Source: Planctomyces sp.
GTDB taxonomy: Bacteria > Planctomycetota > Planctomycetia > Planctomycetales > Planctomycetaceae
Direction: 5' to 3'
Length of the DNA: 64,000 nt
Assembly (NCBI GenBank): GCA_016795105.1
Contig: JAEUIH010000036.1
Location: 1-64,000, forward strand
The notes beneath the pieces were generated by a model. That model saw nothing but the letters and a program-made list of their open reading frames with translations, made no database searches and was not told the origin of the DNA. This document shows, in pieces, positions 1,544 through 33,179 of the stretch; the first letter of the stretch is position 1; every line of letters starts with the position of its first letter. Both the position numbers and the translations under genes were made by a program.

Positions 1544-2061
1544 CCTGAAATTGTGGGCTGAAACACTGCGTCCTCGACCGGTGCCGGATTGGGTGCAGGG
1601 TCTCGATCTTGCATCGAAGATCGCCCATTCCAGCGGCTTTTGTCCTCGTCATCGATTCGAGCATTTCGGATGGTTCACCAAATGGATCGCCCGGCTTTCA
1701 GGATGTCGTAACGCCTGCGGCTCGCCGCTAAACTGATGCACCGACGCCTGCGGCTTGCCGTTAAACTCTGCGCCAACGCCTGCGGCTTGCCGTTAAACTG
1801 GATGGGGGATTTGTTACTTGAGAGACTCATTTGAAGTTCCGGGGGATGCTGGTATCCTCATCACAGTAATCCCCTGCGCTGCTTATGACTGGTGATGAAT
1901 GAACTCGAGTTTTGGTGCCAGAACCATTCCTGACGGTCATTGGCAGGTGATCAAAGACGACGCACATCATTGCCGTGAGACCACCAATGCCTAAGCCTGC
2001 TCCGCAGGTTGATCGCCGTTCCAGAAGCTTGTTCCCGAATCATCCGGTAATCCGGCCGGCG
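1544..2061. other. intergenic region with tandem repeat
   Basis: About 500 bases without a convincing gene. It holds the three-copy GCCTGCGGC array (1710-1799) and the upstream region of the methyltransferase, whose reading frame extends up to a GTG at 1975. No promoter could be identified with confidence. Confidence 0.45.
1710..1799 (+). repeat. three tandem copies of the 25-bp GCCTGCGGC repeat
   Basis: Copies at 1710-1734, 1743-1767 and 1775-1799 follow the pattern (A/G)ACGCCTGCGGC(T)(C/T)GCCG(C/T)TAAACT with a 32-33 bp period. The same unit occurs inverted at 32852-32938 (three copies, 31-bp period) and 43346-43370, and in this orientation at 43573-43597 and 45847-45871. It lies between genes except where noted at 43346. 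It is a REP-like dispersed element; the short, near-constant spacers exclude a CRISPR. Confidence 0.8.
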
Positions 2062-3087: not shown

Positions 3088-3151
3088 CAGACAACGACTT
3101 CCGGCTGACGGAGCTGAAAAAGCGCGGCGGTGGCGGCAAATCTGCGCGGTG

Positions 3152-3180
3152 GCGGACGGCAGACGGAGTCTGCCTGCTAC
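3152..3180 (-). repeat. covarying hairpin repeat, copy 2
   Basis: On the minus strand this reads GTAGCAGGCA-GAC-TCC-GTC-TGCCGTCCGC. Relative to the copy at 36465-36493 only four bases differ, and they form two compensatory stem-pair changes. It lies between the methyltransferase and DUF2141 genes, four bases beyond the DUF2141 stop codon, so it may sit in the 3' end of the carotenoid operon transcript. Confidence 0.75.
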
Positions 3181-3183
3181 GGA

Positions 3184-3828
3184 TTATCGGACCCTGATTT
3201 CGATCGGGGAGGCATCGCTGATCGTAATCACGGCCTGACTGAACGAAGGTGGCCCAATCACGCCTCGAGCATTGTTTGAAAATCCGTAGGGTTCAGTGGG
3301 AATACCGATTGCATTCTTTGACAGCTTGCCGTTCCCGTCAATGTCCTGAAAGACAGCAATCGCCACAGATTGATTTAGCGGTAATTCAAGAGCAAACTGA
3401 ACCTGATCGTCCGTCGCGGACACGATCGTGGTGCTGCTGCTCAGTTCTGATTTGGGAAATCCGGTTTCAGATTCAAAGACAGCCACATAGACACTTGATG
3501 ACTTCTCCTTCAAACCAGTAACGCTGAACATCGTCTCCTGCCGTTCGACTGGCTCTGCGGCGGCAGAGGTCGAAGCGAGCTTCACAGAGCGGCCCTCATC
3601 CATCAGCATTGCATCGGAATCATCACGATCGTCCGATGCAATCGCTTTCAAATCCCGGCTCGAAGCAGAAGAAGAGGACTTCTCAATTACTTCATGTCCC
3701 GCCAATCGTTCGAATTGAACTTCTCCAGTAGCCATCCGCGGCGAAAGCATCGATTCCTGAACCAGCAGCACTCCACTGGCAAGACCTATGATCATGATCA
3801 GCACTACATAGATATTCATCGACTTCAT
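3184..3828 (-). CDS. DUF2141 domain protein, last gene of the carotenoid operon
   Basis: 214 residues from the ATG at 3828. The frame extends to 3879, but the upstream part overlaps the permease gene and the signal segment starts here. Residues 4-25 form a hydrophobic signal or anchor, so the protein is probably exported. A Ser/Glu-rich linker leads to a C-terminal DUF2141 domain (about 110-214) with the family features: an AVFQDIDGNGKLSKN acidic turn that resembles a calcium site, then IGIPTEPYGFSNNARG and GPPSF. It follows the ABC permease by 43 bases and is co-directional with eight carotenoid and transport genes. DUF2141 has no settled function. By context it may act in the periplasm on the carotenoid product. 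Confidence 0.75.
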   Translation of the reverse strand: MKSMNIYVVLIMIIGLASGVLLVQESMLSPRMATGEVQFERLAGHEVIEKSSSSASSRDLKAIASDDRDDSDAMLMDEGRSVKLASTSAAAEPVERQETMFSVTGLKEKSSSVYVAVFESETGFPKSELSSSTTIVSATDDQVQFALELPLNQSVAIAVFQDIDGNGKLSKNAIGIPTEPYGFSNNARGVIGPPSFSQAVITISDASPIEIRVR

Positions 3829-17264: not shown

Positions 17265-20200
17265 TTATTTGTTTTTTGTTTCCGGGTTGTTTATGAGTTG
17301 TGATTCGAGGTTGCGAATCTGATTGTCTATGTCGGTAAATCGTGATGGCCAACTGATGGTTCGCAGGGATTTCAGTGTAATCTGTGCGTCTGCAAAACGC
17401 TTCACATGAATCTGAGCTTCGGCAAGTCTCAGTAAGCCGGTGGGTTCAAGTTTGCGGTATTGTGCCACCTGCTTCCAGTGAGGAATCGTCTCCGGCCAGC
17501 GATCCAGAGTCTGCAGTCGCTCGGCATAAGCCTGATGACTCTCGGCCTCGTTCGGTGATGATTCGATGATCGATGTGGCTGCTCGTTCCGATTGACTCGG
17601 ATCGTCCTTCAGGCGATCAGCCAGCTGACTATACAACGTCAGTTCATGCGGCATCAGATCAATCAGCTTTCGCAACTGAACGTTCGCTGCATTTCTGTCG
17701 TCCGTTGCATCATATGCCGCGACTAGTGCCTGATGAGTCTCCCGGTCGTTGGGTTGAAGTTCCAGTGCCAGCTTCAACTGAATGATTGCTTTCGGATGCT
17801 CGCCTCGCTCCTGCCAGACTTGTCCGATCGCCTTACGAAGAATCGGATTATCCTGACCCGATTGTTCCGCTTCCTGGTCAAGCTGCTGAATCAGTGCATC
17901 GAGATCGCCCGCAGAGCGCAGAGTGGATTTGAGGGTTTCAATCGTCTGCTGCCGATACTCATGCAGTGAACTCCAGCACGTGATCGCTGAAACCGCTGCG
18001 TTCACGGCTTCCCTCGTATTTCCGAGTCTTCCGTCGATCGATGCCAGCTGCTGATAGTATCCGGACAAAGTTTGGTCGTTCACACCACTCGCCGGATTTC
18101 CCCGCTGATGCAATACGATCGCTTCGGTCAAATACTTCTTCGCGCGATCCAACTCGTTTACGGCCTGACACCCACCTGCAAACTGTGCAGCGACGGATTC
18201 GCTCCAGCGACCATTTGAGTGGAAATGGGCATCGACGTTCTCGATCAGTCGTTGAAGCTGCTCAGCTCGTTGTGCGGCGAAGTATGCACTCATCAGATCG
18301 GTCCGATAGATCATGTTGTCGGGCCGAAGCTCTGTGAGCATCTCCAGAATCTCGATTGATTCCGGAAGTCGACTCGCGTCCCTGAGCCATCGAACCAGCG
18401 TGTAGTGCATGTTTTCGTCGAGTCGTCCCTGTTCTCGAGCAATCAACATAATCTCAATCGCTCGAGGTATCCGTCCCAATCCACTATGCAGATACTGCGA
18501 TACCCTGAAGACTCGCTGCCCTGAATCCCGTCGTTCGTTGAGAATCTCTTCCGCAAACTTTGCAAACTCATCTGCCTTCTCTGACCAAAACTCTGTGTAA
18601 CCTATATAACACGCCGTCAACATACTCGGATTCGGACTCGTGAGATATCGCTTCAGTTCCGGCAACAACAGCCTCAAGACTCGGTCGTCGTACTCACTCG
18701 GACCAGCGTCCTTTCGGGCGATACAAAGCTCATATCCAAGCGTCTCCCATGGCTGCTCATAATGAACAAGGAATCGCTGCGGATACTGTTCAAGTCGTTC
18801 GACGAGATACCGCAGTCGGTCCTGATGTCCAAGCGTGTCACGGATCAGGGTCAAAGGATGCGAAACCGTTTCACGGTAGTTCTCCTGCTGAAGTGGCAAC
18901 ACTTTCGGAATGATCTCGAACGTCAGCTCTTTAACTCGATCGACACACGCAACCAGACTGTGTCGCCGAGCAGTCTGCAGCAGGTCAACCATCTGTATCA
19001 CCTGGATATATCGCTGATTTTCATCAGTGGCTGAGTTCAGCTCGGTCTTCAGCAATGTAAAGATTGACTCCAGCAGTGCATCTCGGCCGTTCCCGATTGA
19101 AACCGAGCCATCAGCATCCATTGCACGAACGTAGAGGGACCTAAGCCGTTCTTTGAGCTCTATCTCCTGCTGGCGATGTACTGGTTTGGAAATGTACTTC
19201 TTCAGAAGATTCTCGGCCCCTGCGAAGTCATGAACTGTCTCAAGCAGACTGACATACCGGAACAGGCTATTCGTATCTTCATTTGGCAACATGTCCTGAT
19301 TCGCCTGTGAGTACCCGCGGAACTCGATCTCAAGTAGATTCAGGGCCCCTGCCCGATCATCGTAGCTCACGAGGAGAAGCTCGCAGAGATCAAGCGTCAT
19401 CTGCAAACGTGGGCGAGAATTCTCCGGAACCATCTGCCGCAACGCGCGTAACTGCCGAAGCTGTTCATTTTTCATCGCAGGATGCGACAAGTTACCGAGC
19501 TGTCGCAGGAACGAGGCCATCATCTGCGGTTCGTTCTCAGACCACTCATGTTCAAAGGCCCGCTTCATCGCATTGACGCTGGCTTCCAGATGTGGACCGG
19601 GCTGGTTCAGGACTTCTGCCGATTTCCTCTCAATAACGGCTTCCATCAGATCCAGTGCACGACGATCAACGGGTGTCAGCTTCCGTTTCCGCAGCTCCTG
19701 AATTCGCGCGATGAGTTCGTCGGCAGTAGCTTCGTTCCGAACTTCCCCAAGTACATTGTTCTGAATCGACTGCAGAATCGGATAGATCTGCTGAGCTGTT
19801 CTGCCGAGAACGCTGTCCGGAATCAACTTTAGCATTCGGAAGTCGCGACTTGCCGAGTAAATCGAATTGACATAGGAGAAGTAGCTCTCCGGTGAACCAG
19901 ACTTCTCGAACAGAACGCGAACCGCCATCAGAGCTTCATCGGAAAGCTCCGAAGGAAGCGTGGCTCCGTTTTGGTACCATCGGTTCGACGCGGCGTACAG
20001 CAGCTGCGCCAAATACTGTTCCGGCATTTGGCGATAAGCCTCGACCAGGGCTCGTTCGTAGTCGTTGCGGCGATCGAGAGCCAAATACCAGTTCGCCAGA
20101 CTGCGGTAGTCCTGAGCAGACAGTAACTTCGCCTGTTCACAAGCTTCAAACAGGGTAACGGCTTCCGGCAGCTGGCCACGTTCTGCCAGTAATCGAGCCA

Positions 20201-23200
20201 GCATCTGCCGCCAGGGAGCTGTCTGGATATCGGTTCGAACCCAATCCCGTAGTGCAGTCTCAAGTTCTTCCGGACGATCCAAAGCGACAAGCAGCCGGAA
20301 CTTTGTCTGGCGCCATGCTGACCCTGGGTTTCCACTCTGAGAGACTCCGGCGTCAACGAATTTCAGCAAGCGCTGCACGCTCAACGGATCTGCCTTCGAT
20401 CGTGACGCCAAATGCATTACCGTTGCAAATGCTCGTGTCCTGAGCTGAAGTTCCAGCAACTCACGACTTGTTTCTGCATCTGTCTGCGGCTTTGGTACTG
20501 ACGGAGCTGCTCCATCCACAATCCCGGCGATTTCATCATCAATTTCATCGGGTGACAGCTTGAGTAATGGAGGAGCGTCTCCAAGTATCTTCCAGCATGC
20601 TGCTTCAGCTTCAGACAGATTCTGCCCAAGCCCCACGTCAACCCAAATCTGTTCCATACGGAACCAGTCACCAATCGGCCCATCAGATTTTGTCGCCTGT
20701 TCGGCCAGTCGTAGCGACATTTCCTTATGGGCAGTCTCCCGGATTGCAGCCTTTTTCTCAACCAGTTGCTTTCGAGTCATCAGGTCTGTTTCTCCCTGAT
20801 CGTGGAGCTGTTGTTCACCGGCTGTGATACGGTTTGCCAACATCACATCCACGAGCCTGATCAGAGACGGAACCTCCTGAAGCGTTCGACTGTGGGGTTC
20901 CGTTTCAATGCTGAGTTGCCGCAGGATGGAAAACGCCTCCTCTTCGACTTCTATTGACCACTTCGTCTGCAGAAGTTCCTCGAACAGCCCAGCCAAATAT
21001 GCAGCGCATTCCGAAGGCCCAAACTGTGAATCATCTGAAGCCCGGGCGATCCGTTCTCGCAGAAATGGCAGCATTAGAGTGGAACGGAATCGATTCACAT
21101 AGATCATGACGATCGCATCGCTCAACTGTTGCTTTTCAACCTTGACCTCAGCCCTGAGCCAGCGATCTTTCAATGCGACCGCGATTTCGTTCCAAATTCG
21201 ATCGGGCACTTCGCTGCCATCCAGTTCTCGTCGGTCATCAATTGGATCAGTGAGAGACAAGCGGCCACTCATTGTCCAGCTGATGAATGAGGACAGTCGA
21301 TCGGCGGGAATGTCTGCTGCATTGGTTCGAAGGTGGCTCAGCCATTCGCCGCGTAACTTGTCCATGGGTTCACTTTGCCCAAAGTAACCACCCGAAAAAC
21401 ACCGATTGGTCAGGTCAAAGTGCTTTTGATGCTTAGCAAAGAAGCGAGCTGTATCCGCCAGCAATTCGAATGGCCGCTCATCGCGCCACTGAAAGCTCAT
21501 ACCCGGAATCTGTCCATTCAGAAAATTCAGGGCGGCCTCAACTTTTTGACGCTGCGGCGGTGACAATTCTCCTTCCACGCGTGCTTCTTTGAGCCACTGA
21601 TCAACTAACGCGTGCACCTGATCCAGCTTATCGCCAAGTATCAACGCCGCCAGGTGATAGCCATATGCGGTGTAGTACTGCGGATCATTGGGACTGTCAG
21701 CAACCCAGTCTGTCGTCCACTGGACAAGTTCGCTCCACTTCGCCTGAGACTTCAGCAGATTGAATACGAGAGGACGAAGAACGCTGTGATCATATTCTGT
21801 TCGTTCGGGCCTTGCGTCTTCTCGCCGCAGCCACGCTTCAGCCACATCGAAACCTTCGATCTGCTGAAGTCGGTCGGTATACGCCTGCTGAGCATAAACA
21901 TCCCAGGAACGCGATTCCGCTATCGATTTAAAGACAGCAAGCGCCTGCTGTGATTTCCCAAGACGTTCCAGTGCCGAGGCTTCTCGCTGAATCCACATCT
22001 CCTGAATCTCTGAATTCATCGAGCGAAAGTACACAGGCTTCAGTTGCTGATGAACATCGTAGAATTCCTGAGCCGACGCAAAACTGTTTAATTGTCCAAG
22101 CAGGAACTCCGCGAGGAATACTTCGTCGCCAGTCACAGAGGATGACAACCGCGAGGCTTCCGCAGTCAGTCGAACTTTGGCTTCTTCGTGTCGTCGAATC
22201 ACATTCTGAAGCATCGTTCGAATCCACCGAACGCCTGATTTCTCTGTGCTCAGTTTCTCTGTGCTCAGTTTCTCCGCAGCTTCAACATGAATCCACAGTT
22301 CATCCCACTGCTGCAGACGAGCATTGTGTAGAATCATGATGATCCGATCGTCGAACGCTGCTGATCCATCCGCGACTCTTTGTCTTGCTGCACTCAGCCG
22401 AGGCGACGGAGAACTCAGGAACTGCGTTCCAGCCTTTTCAGCCAATGCAGCATTCATTCGCTGTGCATACTGCTCGGGTGTGTGTTTCTGAACGTTCAGC
22501 ACTACGTTAACAAGGCGGCGATTCTGAGCATCAAACGTTTGCACATGACGAGCCCACCAGGTACCAGCAATCTCAACAAAGTCTTCGAACGTTGTCGTTG
22601 AAGTCAGCTTATCGCCTTCAAACTGCTCGATCTTTGTCACAACATGACGGACCGTATCCACTGTAATCATCATGCGGTGTTGAGAACCTTCGACCGACAA
22701 CACAAGGCGCGACGTCTGATTGTTCTCTGTTTCAACGACAGCCTTCCATGTTCCGTAGACGTCCCGGATCGACGAAATCGAGAAATCGTTCAGCTGAAAT
22801 GGCGGCGTTTCCAGTTCCTTCGGAGTTGACGGACGAAGCCTTCCGAGTCCAAACGCAACAGAATAGACGCCTCGCTCCTTTCCGTCACAGAAGTTGACAA
22901 CCGTCTGCTGAGACAGATCATTCCCACGCGTGACCCACGCACCTGGTGAGTACAGCGCGAGATCGCCATGTTGATTCAGTTTTCGATTCCAAACCGGATC
23001 AAGCGACTCAATTTCGCGACGAAGCTCGATGCCGCCTTCAACTGCACGCAACTGATCAATACGCAGCAGGCTGCTTGCCAGAGCACTTGCCTCCGGAGTC
23101 CATTTCGATTTCTGATCTACGACTTCCAAATTCGGCGTATCCGGCGTTGGCTGAACCACTGGAAGAGATGGAAAGAGAGTATTCAGCCAGGATGTGTAGT

Positions 23201-26200
23201 CAGGCTCGTTGTAGTAACCCCGTCCCATCATTGGAGAATCAAAAAAGTGTATTGCGTTCTTGGATTTATCCATCGCCAGCCCGCCTCGCAGGCCGCCCAT
23301 CTCTCCCATCATATATCTGCTCATGTCGTCACCACCAAAGCCGCCACCAACCGGCATATTGTCTGCGAAACCAGCATCCATCTCATCTCTTAGACCAACC
23401 AGCATGTCAGCGGGGCCGTCGAATGACTTCTTTGCAAGTGACAGACTCGATTCCTCTAACGACAACTGCTTCCTTCCGAGATCCATCTCGTCTCGTTCAG
23501 ACTTCGCCGCCAGCTCTTCCTTAATTTCACCTGAATCCGACAGGGAATCGAAATCTGAATCCCCCAGCCGGTTGTCGATTCCGTATTGGTCTTTCCCAAA
23601 CGATGGCTCAAACCCCAAACGTCCATTGAAACCACCGCCACCAAAGCCTCCACCCATTCCTCCACTGGCAGACATTGGACGATTCCATTGTTGTTGCCTC
23701 TTGAAATCCATTTCGAGCATCGATCTGCTTCGCCCCAGCCCTGAGAGTTCCTGGAGTATCTGACGCCGGAGATTCAACCTCCACGTTCCTGCAAGCTTCA
23801 TTTGCTGCTGCAGAAGTTCAAAGTTTGCATTTGCACGGCCTTCGGCAAAGAAGCGTTCCCCGTCCCGCATTTCGTAACGGCGTTTCACGCCAAATCGTTC
23901 CCGATCGTTGTCGGACTCAAGCACCAGAAGTGACGTGTAGGGTGTGATGATGTGGAACTCTTCCGAAAGCCGTACGACATCATCCTGAATCGCGGAATTC
24001 GTTCCCTGAGCCAGCAAGTGGTCGAGATGCGATCGAGCCCAGAGACGCGGAATAAACGAGTTCCCGTCTTCCGCGTGCTTCAGATCAATTCGAGCCGCAT
24101 ACCGCACAAGTTCACTGCCACGTCTGCCGCTGACAATCACCTCGCCCGTCTGAGCTTTTCCTTCAGGGAGATATCGTCCGACCAGGATCTGCTGAGTCCC
24201 CGCCGGGATGTTCGGTAACTGCTCTGGATACACAGCAGCGACCTTGAGACCCTTGAATTCTATTTTCAGATCCCTGAGTCCGGGTTGAGCTATCTCGTTC
24301 AATAGTTCGGTCGCAACCACCTGCGAGGTCTGCTCGCCACTCACGACTCGAGATGATCCGCGTCCAACAGTCGCGATGCCTCTCATAACAACCGAATCAC
24401 TGGTATTGCCGACCGTTACCGTATGCAGTGTGATTTGAGACAGTTGCTTGTCTGGCGTTCTCTGAGAGTTCTGAGCCAGTTGCGGCATCTGTGCAAGCCG
24501 TTTCACGAAAGCGGGTGCGTCCGTGTCACCAGCTGACAACATTCCATCTCCGATGTAGATCACATTCGCATCCGCCGGGACTTTCACCAGAACGTCTTCG
24601 TATGCGCGATCCAGATTGGTCCAGCCCAGAGAAATACGGTCGGCAAGAAACGCCTTTGCTGCCTCAACATTCGAAGCCGTGGCCGCCTGCATTTCACCTG
24701 ATCCCCATGCCGTGGCAACATCCGCTGCAACAAGCTGGAATTGATCCTCCGGCCCCAGCGAAGCCAGAATCGAAGCTACGAAATCCATCTGGTCACGCCG
24801 CTTTGCTTCATCCATCGACATCGACGTATCACAGAGCAGAACGATCCTGAGCGGAGCACCTTCTGGAAGTACTTCCCGCTGCCAATTTCCAACGCCACCT
24901 GGCGGAGTCAACTGGATCAGGAAATAGCCGTCGTCTCCGCGCTGATGTGGAATGACAACCACATCGTTCTGTCGTTCATCGAGCTCGAATACCACCTCAA
25001 AATCGCGATTCGGCGAATACTCCTGAGCGGAGAAATCCACTTGTGCGGAATGTTCGGTCAACTGAGTTCGAGTTGAATGCGTCGGACACGTGACTTGCTT
25101 CAAAGGCAGAGCAGAGTTGACGTTCACCGAAAGCGAGAGTTCTCGCAATGGCTTTGTACGCAACAGTTCACTTCGCAACCCATACGAATACCGATACTTG
25201 TTTGCTCGAAGTGGAAGTACCTGAGTATAGACAATTTTGATTCTCTTCTCGGACCGTGCTTCAATTGGAAATACGCGAGCTTTAAAGACATTCCCGCTCG
25301 TCCATTCCAGGAGCCCGGGATCACGACGTTCTCGCAGAATCGTTTCGTAAATTTCACGAGCACGCTGCTTCTCAACAACATCGGCTTCGACAAGCTGGTT
25401 ACCGATCCACATCCCGAAACCGCTGATCGAAGCATCCTGAGGCAATGGGAAATGGAAGATTCCTTCAAGTTGGGATGCTGTATGATTAACAAACGATTCC
25501 TCAATGGTTGTTCGAGCAATCTGATCACGAATCTCGACGCTGACTTTATGGTAACCAACCGTCAGAGGTTCATTGCGACCGTCCGGCATTGTGACGAGCA
25601 GCGACCCCAGTGATTCATTGTTTGAAGCACCTTCAAAGCCCTGCAGCCACGACGGCTTCTGAGGCACTTCAATGAGCGATTCACTTTGATCTGTCCGCAG
25701 AATCAGACTTTGACCCGGCTTGACTTCCTTTTGACCGGCTTGCGGAGCGAGCAGATTCAGTGAGGAACTGTTTTGCTCATTCTCAGCAACCACGACCTGA
25801 ACAATCCCATAGTGCAGTCTGGCTTCATTCAGTGAAATCAGCTCAATCAATGATCCAGGCCCAAGCGTAATCGCACTCCCGTTCGTCAACTGCACCCGTA
25901 CAGCATTGGCGCCTCGAACGTCCGTGCGAAGCCAGTCACCGGGTTGAACCAGCGTTTCACTGCTGATCGGCGTCCAGCGCTTCGCCAGCCGTGGACGCAG
26001 GACAACAATCCCCTGCGATTCACTGATGTCTCCAATCCGTCGGTCCTCCGACAGAGACTTCGAAACAGAGAACTGTTCATCCGCCACAGCGACGTTCAAT
26101 GCGACCAGAGTCATTTCCGCCAGCGGTGGCCCAATGCGTTTGCTTTCGGGATCCCATGCGGCGATCTCCAGCAAACGCAGGTTCTTCGAATCCACGGCGG

Positions 26201-26915
26201 CTTCGATCTCGATTTCGCCATCTTTGCTCGGCAGATGAACTCGATAGATCAGACAGTCGATACCATCCCGATTCTCGCGGTCAACCGGACGAGCGTTCAG
26301 CAGTCTGCTAGCGTCTGTAATTTCTGAATCCAGCAGCGACAGCAGGTCTATTCGTTCCTGAGGACTCAAAAACCAGGGTGAATCTGTCTCTTCGACCGTG
26401 TTCGATGCTTCGTCGATCTTCCACAATCTGGAGCCGGCGGCAATCTGATACTTGTGAGAGGACTCCTGATATCGCACCAGTCCCGGAGTTCGAATCCAGA
26501 CATCAGCAATGGTATCCTCACGCACAATCTTCAGCTGGATTGAATCAGCGCGCTGTAGTTCACTCAGCACCTTTGAGAACGGTGTGGCGATGACCGTCGG
26601 CGTCGAGAAGCTCACAGCAAACCACAACGCGATGGTGGATGCAATCGCCGCGATACTCGCAAGGGCTCGTGACGCCAGAAGTGTAAACATCGGATGTCTC
26701 CGTTGATTCTGTTGAGATGTATCTCTGACTTTTTCGGCCTGCACAATCGTCAGGGTGACGTCTTTCGACGTAGCTGCCTGATCAAATGCGGCCGCCGCGA
26801 CGACTGCGATTGCATCAAGCGCCGCAAAATCCGGCTCGGGAAGTGAACCGTCGATCTGCTTCAGCAAAGATGCCAGTTGACGATCGCTGGGATCCGAAGA
26901 ATTCAAATTCGTCAT
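17265..26915 (-). CDS. giant membrane protein with FecR-like, VIT, VWA and TPR/helical regions; putative anti-sigma factor
   Basis: 3216 residues. The cytoplasmic N-terminus (1-77) is short and helical like an anti-sigma domain. One membrane helix follows (about 78-103), so the bulk is probably outside the cytoplasm. Then come an outer-membrane-lipoprotein-sorting-like region (110-290), a FecR-like segment (about 300-390, with GDWLRTDVRGANAV), a VIT domain (about 440-570) and a VWA domain with MIDAS DTSMS (696-700). A Gly/Met-rich disordered part (about 1120-1300) follows, then a long TPR-like helical region to the end. The start overlaps the ECF sigma gene by 4 bp (ATGA), the usual arrangement of sigma and anti-sigma genes. 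The regulatory role is inferred from this arrangement; ligand unknown. A two-copy 15-bp tandem duplication lies at about 22235-22265 (KLSTE twice). Confidence 0.85.
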   Translation of the reverse strand: MTNLNSSDPSDRQLASLLKQIDGSLPEPDFAALDAIAVVAAAAFDQAATSKDVTLTIVQAEKVRDTSQQNQRRHPMFTLLASRALASIAAIASTIALWFAVSFSTPTVIATPFSKVLSELQRADSIQLKIVREDTIADVWIRTPGLVRYQESSHKYQIAAGSRLWKIDEASNTVEETDSPWFLSPQERIDLLSLLDSEITDASRLLNARPVDRENRDGIDCLIYRVHLPSKDGEIEIEAAVDSKNLRLLEIAAWDPESKRIGPPLAEMTLVALNVAVADEQFSVSKSLSEDRRIGDISESQGIVVLRPRLAKRWTPISSETLVQPGDWLRTDVRGANAVRVQLTNGSAITLGPGSLIELISLNEARLHYGIVQVVVAENEQNSSSLNLLAPQAGQKEVKPGQSLILRTDQSESLIEVPQKPSWLQGFEGASNNESLGSLLVTMPDGRNEPLTVGYHKVSVEIRDQIARTTIEESFVNHTASQLEGIFHFPLPQDASISGFGMWIGNQLVEADVVEKQRAREIYETILRERRDPGLLEWTSGNVFKARVFPIEARSEKRIKIVYTQVLPLRANKYRYSYGLRSELLRTKPLRELSLSVNVNSALPLKQVTCPTHSTRTQLTEHSAQVDFSAQEYSPNRDFEVVFELDERQNDVVVIPHQRGDDGYFLIQLTPPGGVGNWQREVLPEGAPLRIVLLCDTSMSMDEAKRRDQMDFVASILASLGPEDQFQLVAADVATAWGSGEMQAATASNVEAAKAFLADRISLGWTNLDRAYEDVLVKVPADANVIYIGDGMLSAGDTDAPAFVKRLAQMPQLAQNSQRTPDKQLSQITLHTVTVGNTSDSVVMRGIATVGRGSSRVVSGEQTSQVVATELLNEIAQPGLRDLKIEFKGLKVAAVYPEQLPNIPAGTQQILVGRYLPEGKAQTGEVIVSGRRGSELVRYAARIDLKHAEDGNSFIPRLWARSHLDHLLAQGTNSAIQDDVVRLSEEFHIITPYTSLLVLESDNDRERFGVKRRYEMRDGERFFAEGRANANFELLQQQMKLAGTWRLNLRRQILQELSGLGRSRSMLEMDFKRQQQWNRPMSASGGMGGGFGGGGFNGRLGFEPSFGKDQYGIDNRLGDSDFDSLSDSGEIKEELAAKSERDEMDLGRKQLSLEESSLSLAKKSFDGPADMLVGLRDEMDAGFADNMPVGGGFGGDDMSRYMMGEMGGLRGGLAMDKSKNAIHFFDSPMMGRGYYNEPDYTSWLNTLFPSLPVVQPTPDTPNLEVVDQKSKWTPEASALASSLLRIDQLRAVEGGIELRREIESLDPVWNRKLNQHGDLALYSPGAWVTRGNDLSQQTVVNFCDGKERGVYSVAFGLGRLRPSTPKELETPPFQLNDFSISSIRDVYGTWKAVVETENNQTSRLVLSVEGSQHRMMITVDTVRHVVTKIEQFEGDKLTSTTTFEDFVEIAGTWWARHVQTFDAQNRRLVNVVLNVQKHTPEQYAQRMNAALAEKAGTQFLSSPSPRLSAARQRVADGSAAFDDRIIMILHNARLQQWDELWIHVEAAEKLSTEKLSTEKSGVRWIRTMLQNVIRRHEEAKVRLTAEASRLSSSVTGDEVFLAEFLLGQLNSFASAQEFYDVHQQLKPVYFRSMNSEIQEMWIQREASALERLGKSQQALAVFKSIAESRSWDVYAQQAYTDRLQQIEGFDVAEAWLRREDARPERTEYDHSVLRPLVFNLLKSQAKWSELVQWTTDWVADSPNDPQYYTAYGYHLAALILGDKLDQVHALVDQWLKEARVEGELSPPQRQKVEAALNFLNGQIPGMSFQWRDERPFELLADTARFFAKHQKHFDLTNRCFSGGYFGQSEPMDKLRGEWLSHLRTNAADIPADRLSSFISWTMSGRLSLTDPIDDRRELDGSEVPDRIWNEIAVALKDRWLRAEVKVEKQQLSDAIVMIYVNRFRSTLMLPFLRERIARASDDSQFGPSECAAYLAGLFEELLQTKWSIEVEEEAFSILRQLSIETEPHSRTLQEVPSLIRLVDVMLANRITAGEQQLHDQGETDLMTRKQLVEKKAAIRETAHKEMSLRLAEQATKSDGPIGDWFRMEQIWVDVGLGQNLSEAEAACWKILGDAPPLLKLSPDEIDDEIAGIVDGAAPSVPKPQTDAETSRELLELQLRTRAFATVMHLASRSKADPLSVQRLLKFVDAGVSQSGNPGSAWRQTKFRLLVALDRPEELETALRDWVRTDIQTAPWRQMLARLLAERGQLPEAVTLFEACEQAKLLSAQDYRSLANWYLALDRRNDYERALVEAYRQMPEQYLAQLLYAASNRWYQNGATLPSELSDEALMAVRVLFEKSGSPESYFSYVNSIYSASRDFRMLKLIPDSVLGRTAQQIYPILQSIQNNVLGEVRNEATADELIARIQELRKRKLTPVDRRALDLMEAVIERKSAEVLNQPGPHLEASVNAMKRAFEHEWSENEPQMMASFLRQLGNLSHPAMKNEQLRQLRALRQMVPENSRPRLQMTLDLCELLLVSYDDRAGALNLLEIEFRGYSQANQDMLPNEDTNSLFRYVSLLETVHDFAGAENLLKKYISKPVHRQQEIELKERLRSLYVRAMDADGSVSIGNGRDALLESIFTLLKTELNSATDENQRYIQVIQMVDLLQTARRHSLVACVDRVKELTFEIIPKVLPLQQENYRETVSHPLTLIRDTLGHQDRLRYLVERLEQYPQRFLVHYEQPWETLGYELCIARKDAGPSEYDDRVLRLLLPELKRYLTSPNPSMLTACYIGYTEFWSEKADEFAKFAEEILNERRDSGQRVFRVSQYLHSGLGRIPRAIEIMLIAREQGRLDENMHYTLVRWLRDASRLPESIEILEMLTELRPDNMIYRTDLMSAYFAAQRAEQLQRLIENVDAHFHSNGRWSESVAAQFAGGCQAVNELDRAKKYLTEAIVLHQRGNPASGVNDQTLSGYYQQLASIDGRLGNTREAVNAAVSAITCWSSLHEYRQQTIETLKSTLRSAGDLDALIQQLDQEAEQSGQDNPILRKAIGQVWQERGEHPKAIIQLKLALELQPNDRETHQALVAAYDATDDRNAANVQLRKLIDLMPHELTLYSQLADRLKDDPSQSERAATSIIESSPNEAESHQAYAERLQTLDRWPETIPHWKQVAQYRKLEPTGLLRLAEAQIHVKRFADAQITLKSLRTISWPSRFTDIDNQIRNLESQLINNPETKNK

Positions 26916-27511
26916 GACAGTCTGGCTCCCTGATCAGAGCCAACAAGAAGCTCGAACGCTGCACGAAACTCTCGTCGCGCACGAGCCAGTTTGGACTTTG
27001 CCGCATCAATCGTACTACCGAACTCCGCCGCGATGTCTTCCAGGCTGCGTTCATCCAGATACTTCGATGTCAGCAGTATTGCGTAGTCGCCTGGAATCTC
27101 CGCCAGAACCCGTCGAACGAGATCCGCGACATCCTGACGTTCACTCTCCAGAAAAAGGTGGTCCTCTGTTTCCAGCAGTTGAACAACATCCAGTTGACCA
27201 GACTCGACAAGCGACCTCCATCGGTGAGCCCGCTCTTCCTTTCGCCAGAAGTTCGCTGCCTGTCGATGAACAATGCCTGTCAACCAGCCCCACAGAGTTC
27301 CCTGTTCCGGATCGTAACGCCGCCCTGCCATCGCCGCCGCAAGAAATACTTCCTGAACAACATCTGCTATGGCAGCCGAATCTCCACCAACAAGCCTTGC
27401 CGTCAGTCGCCAGACAGCAATCCTGTAGTTCTCATACAGCGCAGCCCAGGCTGCTCGATCACCCTGCCGCAATCGCAAACCGACGTCCTGTTGTTCTTCC
27501 GGACCTAACAC
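26912..27511 (-). CDS. ECF-type RNA polymerase sigma factor
   Basis: 199 residues. Region 2 includes DVVQEVFLAAAMAG and WGWLTGIVHRQAANFWR; region 4 includes YLDERSLEDIAAEFGSTIDAAKSKLARARREF, a helix-turn-helix. Region 3 is absent, as in the ECF class. It starts 170 bp after the end of the kinase gene on the same strand and overlaps the giant membrane protein downstream. It probably drives transcription in response to signals sensed by the kinase or the giant protein. No target promoter could be identified here. Confidence 0.92.
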   Translation of the reverse strand: MLGPEEQQDVGLRLRQGDRAAWAALYENYRIAVWRLTARLVGGDSAAIADVVQEVFLAAAMAGRRYDPEQGTLWGWLTGIVHRQAANFWRKEERAHRWRSLVESGQLDVVQLLETEDHLFLESERQDVADLVRRVLAEIPGDYAILLTSKYLDERSLEDIAAEFGSTIDAAKSKLARARREFRAAFELLVGSDQGARLS

Positions 27512-27680
27512 AAAGCCCGCTCTCTACTGATGACAAAGCCTCTGACGAGGAAGTTGGCGCTTCACCGAGACAGGTGTCGCGAAATCTGTCGGATTTCAGA
27601 AAAAGGCGGTTTAGTGCAATTCTGCATCCAGGTCACGCTCGAGAAATCCATTGCTCGATTCATGCCAGAATCGCACCCGT

Positions 27681-30600
27681 TCATCTGGCGTTCTCAGACT
27701 CCAGTGCCAGCAGAGAAGGGGAGCTCAGAGCCAGACGAAATCCGCAATCAGATCCCCGGGACGAGGGTGGTAACGTGGTCCGTGCTTCGGACCGGCAACT
27801 GTGAGGATCAAAGCCCAGGCTGCCGCCGCGACGAATTCTCCCGGATTGACCAACTGCATACAAATCCCAGCACCATTCCTGGACGTTGCCATGAACGTCG
27901 AAAAGTCCCCAGGCATTCGGCAACTTTGCGCCACATGGTTCAGCCGTATACGTGCCGTACATCTGACCATACCCCGCCAGCAAAGTCTCGTTGTCGCCAG
28001 TCGAGAACTTTGTCGCTGACCCGGCGCGACATGCGTACTCCCACTCCGCCTCAGTCAACAGGCGATAACCACTGGCACCCGAAATCTGACGCCATTCGTT
28101 ATGCATGGTATTCTGATAGTCATTCAATTCCTGACGCCCTGTTCGGACATACCGCGGCTGCAACCCTTCACGCAGACTCAGCCAGTTACAGTACATTAAG
28201 GCATCATACCAACTTACATTCTGAGCAGGATGGTCGGGAGTGGGGCTGACCTTCAGTTCCGCACCCATCCAGCCCTCTGGCTGTTGGGCCGAGTCATATT
28301 TCGGATCATTCATGAACGTCTCAAACTGGCCTCGTGTCACTTCCCTGTCGCTCACCCAGAAGTCACCCCCAACCTTCAGCTGCTTCCCGCCCTGACCAAT
28401 GCCGGTGAGAATCGCCACAAACCTCGGTTCTCTTCGCAGAATCGCAAAGTCCGGATCTTCGTGGACTCCGGATTTATCTCTGAAACCATTCTGTACAGCC
28501 CGATCAAGCAACTCCACTGCACGATCAACATACCGTTGCCTGTCAACCGCGTACTCTGCTCCAGGCCGAGCCTCTGCACAACGCGCTGCAACGCAGGCAA
28601 CACTGTAGAGCGTATACCAATCCTTCGGATTTTCTCTGGATGCGTCTGCAACGAGTCGTTCCGCTTCAGGGATTTCACCCAGCCACACATGGACCATGCC
28701 CTCGGCGTAGACCCTGTAAGGTTTTGATGCATCCTGTTTGAAGTAGTCAGCAAGCAGGTTCTTCGCTTCAACGGCTCGCCCCATCCGCGCCAGCGTCAGA
28801 ATGCGATACAATTCTATCGTCGGCAATGCTTCACCGGGCTCGTGCTGAAGGAGGAACATAAAGTCGTCCAGTGCTCGCTCAAGATTGCCTGTATAATAGT
28901 GTGCCATCCCGCGTTGCATGCGAGTATCCGGATTATTGAAGTCTCTCTCCGCCTGGGATTCCATCGCCATTAACTGCTGACGAAGTTTTTCGACCGGATC
29001 AGGAATCTCGCCTGCCAGCGCAGCAGGCACAGGTCGGATCCGCAACATTGTGACTCCGCCGGAATTGACAAACCAGTTTCTCTTATCGCTGATCACATGA
29101 GCTTCCGGAATCTCCGGAACGTCCAGTTTCCAACTCCGCAGAAGCCATGCAGCAGCGCTGTGCGTGGATGAATCACTCGCTTCCAGATACCACCCGGACG
29201 CAAGTGACTTCCACGACTCTTTGTCACCTTCGGGAACATCGTCTGCCGGAATCTGACCAACTGCAAGGCAGATTCCGGATCGCAGAGCAGGGCTCTCGCT
29301 GTTCTTTACAGAATCGAGCACGACCTTCAGGTCAACCCCCCAATGACGACACTCCTCAATAAACAACGTCCGCTGCTCCGGATCAGGGCGGTCGTCAAAG
29401 GCACAAAGGTCTTCAGCAAGCGCGGAGTCTCCCAGAGCACACGCGACCATTGCGAATCTTGCCCTGCGACGCCAGAGCGATTTATCCGTGCACGTCTCAG
29501 CCTCTGCTTTCAGAGCTTCAATCACGGCACTCCGATTGATCTGCATCGCTGTGACATAGTTGCGAGTATCCTCGTCTGCAATTTCATCAATTTGTGACAC
29601 GAAGTAAGGAATATCCAGCTCGTTGTAGTCTGCCAGAGCAAAGGCCACTGCCAGTTTATGGCGGGCATTGGAGACGGATGCGAATCGAGCCTTCAGTTCA
29701 GGTATAACCATTGTGGCTGGAAGAGTTCGAAGCTTCTCCAGATTGAATGGAACACTCGGACCAAGATTATTCTGCATGGCTTCCACGGCGGTTTGCGTTT
29801 GCTGACGAAGGTTCTTTTCTCGTTCTGCTGAAGTCCACGAATGCAGTCCCGCCCCAAACAGCACTGCAGCCACCAGCAATCCACCCCAGCGGATTCCATG
29901 GAACTGAGTTGCCTTCTTCATCATGGCCTGTTGCGACTCAGTCCAGCGACTGGACTTCGTCAGCAGACGAATACCTATCCATTCGCTGAATGTTGGAAGC
30001 TGCTTGTTCTCCTTCTTCACTCTCCAGATCGCCGACCGTTCCTCAAGTTTCAGCTCCGCTCGACCCTTCCGCGTTTCACGCTGCTTGCGAGTGAGCCATT
30101 CACGTAGAGAAGGGACCAGATAGTCGTGAGTGAGCTGGTAGAAGCGGGTCGTGGGGAGTGAGGAACGATCAATGGGCGTTTGGGAGTTCGGAGTTTCGCC
30201 CCTGTTTTCTACTGCCAATTCCCCACTCCCCGCTGCACCTTCCGTCGGAGTAATCAATCGCAATTCGCCGTCGAGAAGCCGCAGGAGATCCATGAAATCG
30301 GAAGTTCGACCCTGATAACCGGAGGCCTCCTGCAATTCGGCCAGAGATCTCATGTGACCTTTGATATCGGTGTCCAGGTCTGGCAGCAACGTGCCGAGGA
30401 CCCTGCGTGCAGCCATCGAATGAAGTCGATGCCCGGGGTTAGCCTGAGCAGAGCTGAATGTCTCTTCCAGGAAATTGACTCCAATCCCCTGAGTCCCCCC
30501 GACCTGCTCCAGCGTGGACGTCGTCCAGGGTTTGTTCTTCACCATTTCTGCAAACAGAGACAATCGGACTGATACGACTTTCCCGTCATGAGACAGTCCT

Positions 30601-32168
30601 GCACAAACATCGCTGACAAATCGCTTTTCATCGATGGACATTTTGTCTCTGTCAGTCGACAGCCTGCCCAGGGCCTGACCGAACTTCATCAAAACTGACT
30701 CAGCATGATCGACATCAAACAGGTCAACCAGTGCAAAATTGTGTCCTTCAACAATTGGGATATCGAGGACTCTCATCATCCTCGCGGCGGCCACAGAAAA
30801 GTCATCCCGCACCATGACAATCGCCTGTAGTCGACCGCCATCGCACTGCCGCAGAGCATTGACCAGCTCGACACCCGACTCAGCCCTGTTCGCATGCAGC
30901 CATTGCTCAAACTGATCGACAATAACGACAATCTTCTTTGACGATTGCTGCCCCTGCCCTCTTCTTAGAGAAGCCAGCGTGTCGGCGAGTCCCAGGTTCT
31001 TTGGTAACTCCGGAAAACTTTTCTGCAGGCCTCTCAGGATACGCGATTCCGTCTCATCAGGAGTGGCTTCAATGTAGACTGCGATGACATCCTTTGAAAG
31101 ATGCGGTAACAGACCGGCTTTAGCCAGCGACGACTTCCCGCAACCGCTTGGGCCGTAGATCAGCCCAACAATGAAGGTCTGATCCGGGTCGGTCTGTTCA
31201 ATACGTGTCTTCCAGAAAGCTATGCTCTCAGGAAGTCCATCACGATTCCTTTGCCCCGGCAGCAGATCCAAAAAAAAGTCGGCATCATTAACATCGAATG
31301 ATCGCAACCCCTTCGGAACAATTCTGACTGCGACTTTCGCCTGCCCTCCCCCAGCTAATGGCTTTAACCACTGCTCAAGGTCATCAGCAAATTCAGACGC
31401 CGTTGCATACCGATCGGAGGCTCGCTTTGACAGCGCCTTCAGGCAAATACGCTGAAGCTCCTCGGGGATGGTCGGCTGCAATTCCCGAGGAGCCCGCGGT
31501 TCGACACTGATCACCTGCTGCAGTGTCTCCATTACGGTACTGCCGCGAAACGGCCTCTCTTCTGTCAGCAGCTGATACAGGATCACGCCCAGTGAAAAGA
31601 TGTCACTGCGACCGTCGAGCCGATGGCCTTCACCTCGAGCCTGCTCCGGACTCATGTAAGCCGGCGTCCCCGCGATTGCACTTTGCTTCAGATAGTCTTC
31701 TTCTCGAACCGCCAATCCGAAGTCCGCCACGAACGGCGTATTCGAGTGATCTTCGATCAGAATGTTGGCTGGCTTAATATCACGGTGAATCAGTCGCTTC
31801 TGGTGGGCATAATGAAGTGCCTTCGCTACTGTCGCCAGCAATCGAACGGATTCTCGCTCTGCAAATTGACGATCCCTGATGCGATCTTCCAGCGTCGAAC
31901 CATCAACAAACCGCGAGACGACATAGATCGACCCATCCGCTGTACGTCCGACATCGTAAACCGCCACAATGTTCGGGTGGTCCAGACTGGCCACAGTTCT
32001 GGCTTCAGCAAGATATGCGTCAGCATCTTCGGGCCTGTGAAATCGAGCCTTCGACGGGACCTTGATCGCCACCTGTCTGTGCAGTTCTTCGTCAAACGCC
32101 AGATACACCAAACCAAACGCACCCTCGCCGAGCACGCGGTCAAGCCGGTATCGCCCTTCCTGCTGCAC
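27681..32168 (-). CDS. serine/threonine protein kinase with nSTAND, TPR and FGE-like domains
   Basis: 1495 residues from the GTG at 32168. The kinase domain (6-270) is complete: GEGAFG (14-19), Lys36, HRDIKPAN with Asp130, DFG (149-151), APE-like SPE. A STAND/AAA NTPase region follows with Walker A GPSGCGKS (339-346). Then come a membrane helix (about 755-780), a TPR-like region and a C-terminal FGE-sulfatase-fold domain (about 1260-1490, ending GFRLALSS). That domain shows a single Cys in SCRSEAR instead of the Cys pair of active formylglycine-generating enzymes, so it is probably a ligand-binding sensor. It is followed by the ECF sigma gene (170 bp). The same frame continues upstream past one TAG into the adaptor ORF. 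Confidence 0.93.
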   Translation of the reverse strand: MQQEGRYRLDRVLGEGAFGLVYLAFDEELHRQVAIKVPSKARFHRPEDADAYLAEARTVASLDHPNIVAVYDVGRTADGSIYVVSRFVDGSTLEDRIRDRQFAERESVRLLATVAKALHYAHQKRLIHRDIKPANILIEDHSNTPFVADFGLAVREEDYLKQSAIAGTPAYMSPEQARGEGHRLDGRSDIFSLGVILYQLLTEERPFRGSTVMETLQQVISVEPRAPRELQPTIPEELQRICLKALSKRASDRYATASEFADDLEQWLKPLAGGGQAKVAVRIVPKGLRSFDVNDADFFLDLLPGQRNRDGLPESIAFWKTRIEQTDPDQTFIVGLIYGPSGCGKSSLAKAGLLPHLSKDVIAVYIEATPDETESRILRGLQKSFPELPKNLGLADTLASLRRGQGQQSSKKIVVIVDQFEQWLHANRAESGVELVNALRQCDGGRLQAIVMVRDDFSVAAARMMRVLDIPIVEGHNFALVDLFDVDHAESVLMKFGQALGRLSTDRDKMSIDEKRFVSDVCAGLSHDGKVVSVRLSLFAEMVKNKPWTTSTLEQVGGTQGIGVNFLEETFSSAQANPGHRLHSMAARRVLGTLLPDLDTDIKGHMRSLAELQEASGYQGRTSDFMDLLRLLDGELRLITPTEGAAGSGELAVENRGETPNSQTPIDRSSLPTTRFYQLTHDYLVPSLREWLTRKQRETRKGRAELKLEERSAIWRVKKENKQLPTFSEWIGIRLLTKSSRWTESQQAMMKKATQFHGIRWGGLLVAAVLFGAGLHSWTSAEREKNLRQQTQTAVEAMQNNLGPSVPFNLEKLRTLPATMVIPELKARFASVSNARHKLAVAFALADYNELDIPYFVSQIDEIADEDTRNYVTAMQINRSAVIEALKAEAETCTDKSLWRRRARFAMVACALGDSALAEDLCAFDDRPDPEQRTLFIEECRHWGVDLKVVLDSVKNSESPALRSGICLAVGQIPADDVPEGDKESWKSLASGWYLEASDSSTHSAAAWLLRSWKLDVPEIPEAHVISDKRNWFVNSGGVTMLRIRPVPAALAGEIPDPVEKLRQQLMAMESQAERDFNNPDTRMQRGMAHYYTGNLERALDDFMFLLQHEPGEALPTIELYRILTLARMGRAVEAKNLLADYFKQDASKPYRVYAEGMVHVWLGEIPEAERLVADASRENPKDWYTLYSVACVAARCAEARPGAEYAVDRQRYVDRAVELLDRAVQNGFRDKSGVHEDPDFAILRREPRFVAILTGIGQGGKQLKVGGDFWVSDREVTRGQFETFMNDPKYDSAQQPEGWMGAELKVSPTPDHPAQNVSWYDALMYCNWLSLREGLQPRYVRTGRQELNDYQNTMHNEWRQISGASGYRLLTEAEWEYACRAGSATKFSTGDNETLLAGYGQMYGTYTAEPCGAKLPNAWGLFDVHGNVQEWCWDLYAVGQSGRIRRGGSLGFDPHSCRSEARTTLPPSSRGSDCGFRLALSSPSLLALESENAR

Positions 32169-32189
32169 TCCAATACCGCTACTGCTGAT

Positions 32190-32660
32190 CTAGGTCGCAG
32201 TGGACGCTACACCTGCCGGGATTCTCACATCAGGTGGCTTTGGTACTTTTGCCGGCTGCTGAACGATGCCCAGAACCGTGTGACTATGAGGATCACTCGC
32301 CGCACCTGTTTCCGGCTTTCGAACGGTTTTTTGTGATTCATCGATCACCAGAGCAATCGGGGAATCCGTCTTCGTGGAAGTAAACTTCAGCGTCCTCTGA
32401 GTCCCCAGGATTTGTTCTATCGCTTCCGCCAATTGTGGAAACCGTTGTATGTACTCGACCGAAGTGCAGGTTTGGCCGAGCTCTCCGCGCAGCGTTGCTT
32501 CTGATGCGATGAGTTCGAGAAGTTCATGTCCCGCAAGAGGAGGTTTGACATCGCTGACGAGGACTTCCACCAACAGCGGCTCACCTCGCCTCCAAGCCTC
32601 AACTTGCCGAGCACGCAAATCTTCAAGGACCTGAGATGATGGCCCCCTGGCATCAGGCAT
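32190..32660 (-). CDS. kinase N-terminal adaptor-like protein
   Basis: 156 residues from the ATG at 32660, which has a GGGGGGAA stretch 6 bases upstream; an in-frame ATG at 32684 is an alternative. Residues about 10-95 match the leader found at the N-terminus of many planctomycete Ser/Thr kinases: ARQVEAWRRGEP, LLELIASEATLRGELG, EYIQRFPQL. A Pro-rich linker follows. It ends in TAG at 32190-32192, and seven sense codons later, in the same frame, the kinase GTG start appears. In relatives this leader and the kinase are usually one polypeptide. Either the gene was split by a nonsense change or the two are now separate partners. Confidence 0.7.
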   Translation of the reverse strand: MPDARGPSSQVLEDLRARQVEAWRRGEPLLVEVLVSDVKPPLAGHELLELIASEATLRGELGQTCTSVEYIQRFPQLAEAIEQILGTQRTLKFTSTKTDSPIALVIDESQKTVRKPETGAASDPHSHTVLGIVQQPAKVPKPPDVRIPAGVASTAT

Positions 32661-32684
32661 TGTCGATTCCCCCCGAGAATTCAT

Positions 32685-33179
32685 TGTCTGCAGTCCGGGG
32701 ATATTAGGGGTGACTCAATGGCAACACAACGCTACCGAACCCCGATCCGTTGGCCTCGGGCGACGATTACTCAAGACGGAATACAACAATCTCGATCTGA
32801 ACGAGTTAACTGGGCAGAGAGATGGACCCCGTTGGTGTGCTGGAATTGACAAGTTTAACGGCGAGCCGCAGGCGTCTGCGCCAGTTTAACGGCCAGCCGC
32901 AGGCGTCTGCGCCAGTTTAGCGGTAAGCCAGAGGCGTCGGTGCGCTGCAGTAACAATATGCATCCACCAGTGCGCTGCAGTGACAACACAAGCATGTAGC
33001 TAAACGATCAAAACGCCATCATCGGGCTGTCGAAGCGGAACCTGTTGCGGCCGACGAATTCAGGGGCCAACAAGGGGTTGAGGAAGAAGCAAACGACAAG
33101 CCGACGCCTGCGGCTCGCCGACGGTCACACGTGGGGTACAACGGTAACCGAACAACAAGTCGGTAACTGATGGTCGCGA
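32685..33179. other. intergenic region with REP arrays
   Basis: About 500 bases without a gene. It contains the inverted three-copy GCCTGCGGC array (32852-32938), a 30-bp-period direct repeat of GTGCGCTGCAGT (near 32940 and 32970), and a partial copy of the same family in the other orientation (33103-33120). The right-hand part holds the upstream region of the kinase operon; no promoter read with confidence. Confidence 0.6.
32852..32938 (-). repeat. three tandem copies of the 25-bp GCCTGCGGC repeat, inverted
   Basis: Copies at 32852-32876, 32883-32907 and 32914-32938, each AGTTTA(A/G)CGG(C/T)..AGCC(G/A)..GGCGTC, with a 31-bp period. They are the reverse complement of the array at 1710-1799. 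The spacers are six nearly constant bases (TGCGCC), so the whole 31-bp unit was probably amplified together. Confidence 0.8.

What the first reader, a model, noticed from the sequence alone, without database searches (positions are those of the whole stretch)
17265..32660. Kinase, ECF sigma factor and giant anti-sigma-like protein in one operon
On the minus strand a kinase with nSTAND, TPR and FGE-like domains is followed by an ECF sigma gene and, overlapping by 4 bp, by a 3216-residue membrane protein with FecR-like, VIT, VWA and TPR regions. Sigma and anti-sigma genes often overlap like this. I infer a signalling system in which the kinase acts on the sigma or anti-sigma factor. I know ECF-kinase pairs in planctomycetes, but not this combination with such a giant partner.
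Basis: partly seen in the sequence, partly recalled or inferred. Interest (0 to 1): 0.75.

Follow-up and report, generated by a model that had tools for sequence, protein, structure and literature searches.

The report
Sigma factor with giant anti-sigma partner
A gene switch (an ECF sigma factor) sits directly in front of a very large membrane protein that most likely holds it inactive, and this two-gene pair recurs across planctomycetes behind its own conserved promoter-like site, whereas the neighbouring kinase looks like a chance neighbour.

Summary
The three minus-strand genes exist as described, but the conserved unit is two genes: the ECF sigma gene (26912-27511) and the 3216-aa membrane protein (17265-26915, 4-bp overlap). 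In 87 loci with the giant, those with a short cytoplasmic head before the membrane helix nearly always have an ECF gene directly upstream (59 of 62); those without a head have none in 13 of 14; four loci carry a different head with a different ECF subfamily. The window's head is predicted as two helices, as in class II anti-sigma factors such as CnrY; the next domain has the LolA/RseB fold. Sigma and giant distances correlate, r 0.77. A promoter-like motif lies before sigma in 43 of 55 loci, in the window between kinase and sigma. The kinase is not conserved: 0 of 40 loci have one upstream on the same strand; the genome has 152 kinase-domain matches. Best reading: an auto-regulated ECF/anti-sigma pair whose anti-sigma carries a giant outer part. 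New variant of a known kind. Binding, signal, release and auto-regulation are inferred.

The parts
26912..27511 (-). ECF sigma factor, 199 aa
   Evidence: conserved next to the giant
17265..26915 (-). giant membrane protein, 3216 aa, proposed anti-sigma factor
26766..26894 (-). cytoplasmic head, residues about 8-50, two predicted helices 9-23 and 30-49
26607..26678 (-). membrane helix, residues about 80-103
   Evidence: hydrophobic stretch, located
26043..26591 (-). LolA/RseB-fold domain, residues about 109-291
   Evidence: AF2 model, VIA-align
25668..26048 (-). FecR-like beta domain, residues about 290-416 (assignment weak)
25227..25550 (-). VIT domain, residues 456-563
24351..24848 (-). VWA domain, residues 690-855, with DxSxS at 696
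17268..22118 (-). TPR-like C-terminal half, residues about 1600-3216 (weak, sub-threshold hits only)
27553..27579 (-). conserved promoter-like motif CGACAC-N14-CGCCAAC before the sigma gene
27681..32168 (-). kinase with nSTAND and FGE domains: neighbour, judged not part of the unit

Best explanation
Sigma and giant form an ECF sigma / membrane anti-sigma pair. In the resting cell the two-helix head of the giant, on the cytoplasmic side of one membrane helix, holds the sigma factor. The rest of the giant lies outside the cytoplasm: a LolA/RseB-fold domain (a fold that binds lipids or lipoproteins in known proteins), a FecR-like beta domain, VIT and VWA domains and a long TPR-like part. A change sensed there, perhaps lipid or lipoprotein state or the giant's own assembly, frees the sigma factor, which then transcribes at least its own operon from the conserved motif. 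Shown by sequence comparison: the recurring pair, the joint presence or absence of head and sigma, the correlated divergence, the upstream motif. Predicted: the two-helix head and the LolA/RseB fold. Inferred: binding, topology, signal, release, auto-regulation.
For: Pair: of 19 giant copies in 17 of 99 genomes, 16 have the sigma gene next to them. Wider set of 87 loci (80, 6, the window; for these last 7 sigma was entered): by a hydropathy rule, of 76 usable loci 59 have head and sigma (4 of the 59 with the other head), 13 neither, 3 head only, 1 sigma only; 11 dropped. Head swap: L146, L147, L151, L159 carry another head and a TIGR02989-type sigma (118.9-142.9 bits, cut-off 124.55, 3 of 4 over it); the four group A sigmas scored, the window's among them, reach 52-68 bits. 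L126 and L127, which lack head and sigma, fall among group A rows in the tree, with middling support. Sigma and giant distances: r 0.773, 0 of 2000 permutations as high, 52 pairs. Motif: CGACAC in 37 of 55 upstream regions against at most 17 for any hexamer in 5 shuffles; 37 of 55 reach 11 of 13 matches against 0.75 expected. AF2 of the L090 sigma plus head: pLDDT 83.4, pTM 0.75, head about 76-85. Fold of 109-291: LprG Z 11.7, LolA up to 10.9, RseB 9.8, MucB 8.5.
Against: No binding was tested. The head was modelled joined to sigma through a stop codon read as glutamine, with only 3 alignment rows over the head; the best whole-length matches have rmsd of 6 A or more, and SigG1, not listed as an anti-sigma complex, aligns over 151 residues at 8.0 A like RpoE/NepR. 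L080 has a head and no sigma found on its contig. L122 and L125 have only sigma remnants. 12 of 55 upstream regions have no credible motif (score 10.3 or less), and the motif was found and scored on the same loci. The LolA-fold region is not found by BLAST in 7 of 49 group A giants, so it cannot be the sensor in all. The correlation partly reflects common descent. DAED of region 2.2 is degenerate (x-V-A-D) in the family and AIAD in the window.
Confidence: 0.75

Rival explanations
1. Three-gene system: the kinase phosphorylates sigma or the giant and so controls release, as PknT does for EcfP and PknS for EcfK.
For: Same strand, kinase directly upstream, no terminator-like site in the gap. Kinase-activated ECFs exist (PMC8999054, passages).
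Against: 0 of 40 loci have a kinase or nSTAND match upstream on the same strand; 3 of 40 have one on the other strand. Only 27 of the 40 have 5 kb or more before sigma, so a long unrelated kinase could be missed in the rest. Conserved promoter-like motif between kinase and sigma. 152 Pkinase matches in the genome. The threonine found two residues after the invariant Q of region 2.2 in 35 of 43 rows is V in the window. The kinase's upstream frame is interrupted by a TAG.
Confidence: 0.07
2. The giant is an effector or structural envelope protein first; sigma only drives its production, and the head gives simple feedback without sensing an outside signal.
For: Relatives without head or sigma exist, with a signal-peptide-like start. 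The only high-scoring sites found in the own genome lie before its two sigma-giant pairs; in 99 genomes the two sites scoring over 40 also lie before such pairs.
Against: A LolA-fold region is found in 42 of 49 group A giants, and weakly (E 0.001) in L077, a head-bearing protein with another outer part; this points to sensing.
Confidence: 0.3
3. Sigma and giant are merely neighbours; the overlap is operon compaction.
For: No direct binding evidence; L080 has a head without sigma.
Against: Head and sigma present or absent together, different head with different sigma subfamily, r 0.773 of distances.
Confidence: 0.05

Closest known systems
CnrH/CnrY (class II anti-sigma; PMC4598750 and PMC7406223, passages)
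   Same: cytoplasmic anti-sigma domain of two helices on a membrane protein (predicted here)
   Different: in the Cnr system a separate protein, CnrX, is the sensor; here about 3100 outer residues are in the same chain as the head
RpoE/RseA/RseB and AlgU/MucA/MucB (system recalled; folds)
   Same: ECF, membrane anti-sigma, and a LolA-fold outer domain
   Different: RseB and MucB are separate proteins; here the LolA-fold domain is in the anti-sigma chain
STPK-associated ECFs (ECF43, ECF59, ECF61, ECF62, ECF217, ECF283; PMC8999054, passages)
   Same: ECF gene near a kinase gene in a planctomycete
   Different: kinase not conserved here; an anti-sigma candidate is present
TIGR03788 VIT/VWA proteins
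   Same: VIT plus VWA core, 203 bits
   Different: far under the cut-off of 551.65; much longer, with head and sigma
planctomycete giant genes (PMC5177795, passages)
   Same: very long gene in a planctomycete
   Different: a word search of that text found no 'sigma factor' and no 'anti-sigma'

Membership tests
ECF sigma factors | sigma regions 2 and 4 only | tested here: met
Class I anti-sigma domain, zinc type | H-x3-C-x2-C motif | tested here: not met
   no Cys in the N-terminal 77 residues
Class I anti-sigma domain | four-helix domain | tested here: not met
   two helices predicted before the membrane helix; prediction only
Class II (CnrY-like) anti-sigma | two-helix cytoplasmic domain before one membrane helix | tested here: met
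   predicted
Class II (CnrY-like) anti-sigma | helices embrace sigma 2 and sigma 4 | tested here: inconclusive
   pTM 0.75; CnrH aligned over 154 residues, Z 11.1, rmsd 6.0; contacts not seen
STPK-associated ECF groups | conserved kinase neighbour, no anti-sigma | tested here: not met
   0 of 40 loci on the same strand; anti-sigma candidate present
LolA/RseB fold | fold of residues 109-291 | tested here: met
   LolA, LprG, RseB and MucB rows at Z 8-12 over about 139-167 residues, beside others such as EPDR1 and VioE; by sequence only 2 of 46 members hit LolA, best E 0.0057
FecR | Pfam FecR match | tested here: inconclusive
   1 of 46 members, E 0.046
TIGR03788 sortase-target VIT/VWA | score over the cut-off | tested here: not met
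   203 against 551.65 bits
ECF groups of the current classification | group assignment | not testable with these tools
   no such library on hand

The most novel reading that the evidence does not exclude
A private sigma factor: an ECF whose main or only target is the operon of one giant envelope protein, which is at once its product, its sensor and its brake. The same giant body has been joined to two different anti-sigma heads, each with its own ECF subfamily.
Probability: 0.35. Interest if true: 0.75.

Novelty: new variant of a known kind. Interest (0 to 1): 0.58.

Why it matters
It would show membrane anti-sigma factors growing to over 3000 residues with the sensor, and possibly the effector, in one chain, and swapping sigma-binding heads in evolution. 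Relatives without head and sigma give a natural comparison, and relatives occur in named strains (Zavarzinella formosa DSM 19928, L121; Thalassoglobus neptunius KOR42, L113) in which it could be tested. It also removes a kinase from a pathway in which it probably has no part.

Tried and rejected
Kinase as a member: rejected. Other conserved neighbours of the giant: none but sigma; the remaining clusters in the list shown are shadow frames of the sigma or giant genes, scattered families (kinases among them), or genes shared by near kin. Regulon search in the own genome with CGACAC-N13-16-CGCMAA: 12 sites against 17 for the reversed pattern; only the two sigma-giant loci score high with the weight matrix, 31.5 and 37.9, the next 10.7. 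A stricter pattern in 99 genomes: 30 sites in 22 genomes against 3 for the reversed pattern, none in the own genome. Three of the 30 lie before a sigma gene of the subfamily (scores 40.9, 45.6 and 15.7); the other 27 score 21.7 or less, and their genes were not identified; the excess over the control is unexplained, so a wider regulon is not excluded. First structure alignment A3, with head-only rows, was misaligned and not used. PDB by sequence profile: no match. VIA-align lists: no conclusion is drawn from families that are not listed. Papers: searches listed no paper that, from titles and the starts of abstracts, describes this pair; passages were seen in PMC8103513, PMC8999054, PMC5177795, PMC4598750, PMC7406223, PMC8567305 and PMC8195603; the last describes other ECF and vWA systems. 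Jogler 2012 is not held; the 2021 ECF re-classification was not read. In the tree, L111 is labelled as without head but is an N-terminally cut fragment.

Full report
What is there. Pfam supports kinase, nSTAND1 and FGE domains in the first, sigma regions 2 and 4 in the second, VIT and VWA in the third; TPR matches stay below Pfam's cut-off, and FecR is found in 1 of 46 family members at E 0.046.

Pair and kinase in relatives. A search of 99 genomes (own genome included) found 19 strong copies of the giant in 17 genomes. The sigma gene is adjacent in 16 of the 19, in L074 split over two frames. Of the other three, L064 (same place as L122) has a sigma remnant, L072 ends at its contig edge, and L080 has a head but no sigma on its contig. 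A scan of genome contigs found 99 stretches that encode a relative and kept the best 80, in Planctomycetota, Verrucomicrobiota, Lentisphaerota and Kiritimatiellota by record title; several are the same contigs as above. No neighbour but sigma recurs beyond scattered families or close kin. Of 49 group A loci of that scan with sigma, 40 have at least 1.5 kb before sigma and 27 at least 5 kb; none of the 40 has a match to the window's kinase or nSTAND domain upstream on the same strand, and 3 have one on the other strand. The own genome has 152 Pkinase matches, some of them halves of one gene; with an assumed 7000 genes, a kinase directly upstream on the same strand is expected by chance at roughly 1% per gene, so one case in 41 is unremarkable (inference).

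Three head types. Group A giants, such as the window's, begin with a short head (consensus D..LA.LL...D.DAP.PD...L.RLR..S...F) before the membrane helix and have the sigma gene next door. Group B giants begin with a signal-peptide-like stretch (by eye and hydropathy only) and have none. Four loci (L146, L147, L151, L159) carry another head and a TIGR02989-type sigma. By a hydropathy rule that does not use the head profile, 76 of 87 loci could be used: 59 head and sigma (4 of them with the other head), 13 neither, 3 head only, 1 sigma only (Fisher p 5e-11, relatedness ignored). The 11 dropped are L099, L106, L111, L119, L136, L138, L145, L148, L150, L162 and L163 (truncated, too little upstream DNA, or a misread start). 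Of the four exceptions, L122 and L125 have sigma remnants; L137 appears to have a spurious N-terminal extension (by eye), and so does L073, whose head matches the profile at E 2.1e-12. L080 was not in that table. In a tree of the VIT-VWA part, L126 and L127, without head and sigma, fall in a set of 8 rows with 6 group A rows (support 83, not starred); the four other-head loci lie in one set of 8 rows (support 100) that also holds two loci without a head and two unassigned.

Co-inheritance. Sigma and VIT-VWA distances over 52 pairs correlate at r 0.773, none of 2000 permutations as high; the second pair of the own genome (L059) has its nearest sigma and nearest body in the same two loci, L152 and L157. 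Common descent contributes to this.

Promoter-like motif. In 55 upstream regions CGACAC occurs in 37, against at most 17 for any hexamer in 5 shuffles. The pair CGACAC and CGCAAAT at 12-17 nt reaches 11 or more of 13 matches in 37 of 55, against 0.75 expected from shuffles. With a weight matrix made from those 37, 43 of 55 regions score 17.4 or more and 12 score 10.3 or less or nothing; the window scores 31.5. The pattern was chosen on these same loci. In the window it is at 27553-27579, in the gap between kinase and sigma. Of 12 exact pattern matches in the own genome, against 17 for the reversed pattern, only the two before its two sigma-giant pairs score high. A stricter pattern gave 30 sites in 99 genomes against 3 for the reversed one; three lie before a sigma of the subfamily, and the two with scores over 40 lie before sigma-giant pairs; the other 27 score 21.7 or less. 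A wider regulon is therefore not excluded. No terminator-like site was found in the kinase-sigma gap.

Structure. AlphaFold2 of giant residues 1-450 (46 rows) gives two head helices (9-23, 30-49), a disordered linker, and a confident beta domain at about 109-291, mean pLDDT 84.8. That domain aligns best with an uncharacterised Thermus protein (Z 12.6), then EPDR1 (11.9) and LprG (11.7), with LolA (up to 10.9), RseB (9.8) and MucB (8.5) further down. Of 49 group A giants with sigma, 42 have a BLAST match to this region and 7 do not. Sigma joined to the head (L090, stop read as Q) gives pLDDT 83.4 and pTM 0.75, the head region at about 76-85 with only three rows over it. Its long alignments within 8 A are to SigW (157 residues, 6.6 A), CnrH (154, 6.0 A) and RpoE/NepR (150, 8.0 A), all solved with anti-sigma, and to SigG1 (151, 8.0 A), whose title names no anti-sigma; long alignments to sigma factors in polymerase complexes have rmsd of 22 A or more. 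Contacts could not be inspected.

Other heads and bodies. The head recurs on an 871-aa protein (L077, E 9.5e-11) and, more weakly, on a 584-aa one (L082, E 0.0016); L081 (0.28) and L078 (9) are not supported by the profile. L078, also beside a sigma of the wider subfamily, carries PSCyt2 and PSD1 domains.

Kinase reading frame. The 164-aa ORF 32190-32684 is in frame with the kinase, with one TAG between; a same-genus relative (L166) has the frame open there up to its contig edge, 36 bases, but carries a TAG elsewhere. L167, L169 and L171 appear to have an N-terminal leader in one frame with the kinase, though the 164-aa ORF has no significant match there. This suggests an interrupted leader or a sequence error.

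Mechanism and verdict. The best-supported reading is an auto-regulated ECF/anti-sigma pair with a class II-like head and a giant outer part. Binding, signal, release and auto-regulation are inferred. The kinase is most likely a chance neighbour. It is a new variant of a known kind; none of the ten paper searches listed a paper that, from title and start of abstract, describes it, but Jogler 2012 is not held and the 2021 ECF re-classification was not read.

Noticed in passing
window 32168-32684, minus strand: 164-aa ORF in frame with the kinase, separated by one TAG and 7 codons; same-genus L166 has the frame open at that place.
   Followed up: partly
L059 (G000:C155): second sigma-giant pair in the own genome, sigma 40% and VIT-VWA part 50% identical to the window pair.
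   Followed up: yes
L081 (G000:C341): further sigma of the wider subfamily in the own genome, overlapped by a 636-aa ORF with a hydrophobic stretch; head match not significant.
   Followed up: partly
L078, 12684-15506: protein beside a related sigma carries PSCyt2 and PSD1 domains, a possible further outer part.
   Followed up: no
L205, L213, L216 (G059): three similar sites CGCGACACCCC...TTTCGCAAAT on different contigs look like a dispersed repeat.
   Followed up: no
L187-L216: the strict motif occurs 30 times in 99 genomes against 3 for its reverse; 27 of the 30 are not before a sigma of this subfamily.
   Followed up: partly
window 32860-33000: short repeated stretches (CTGGCGCAGACGCCTGCGGCT and others) upstream of the kinase leader (by eye).
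   Followed up: no
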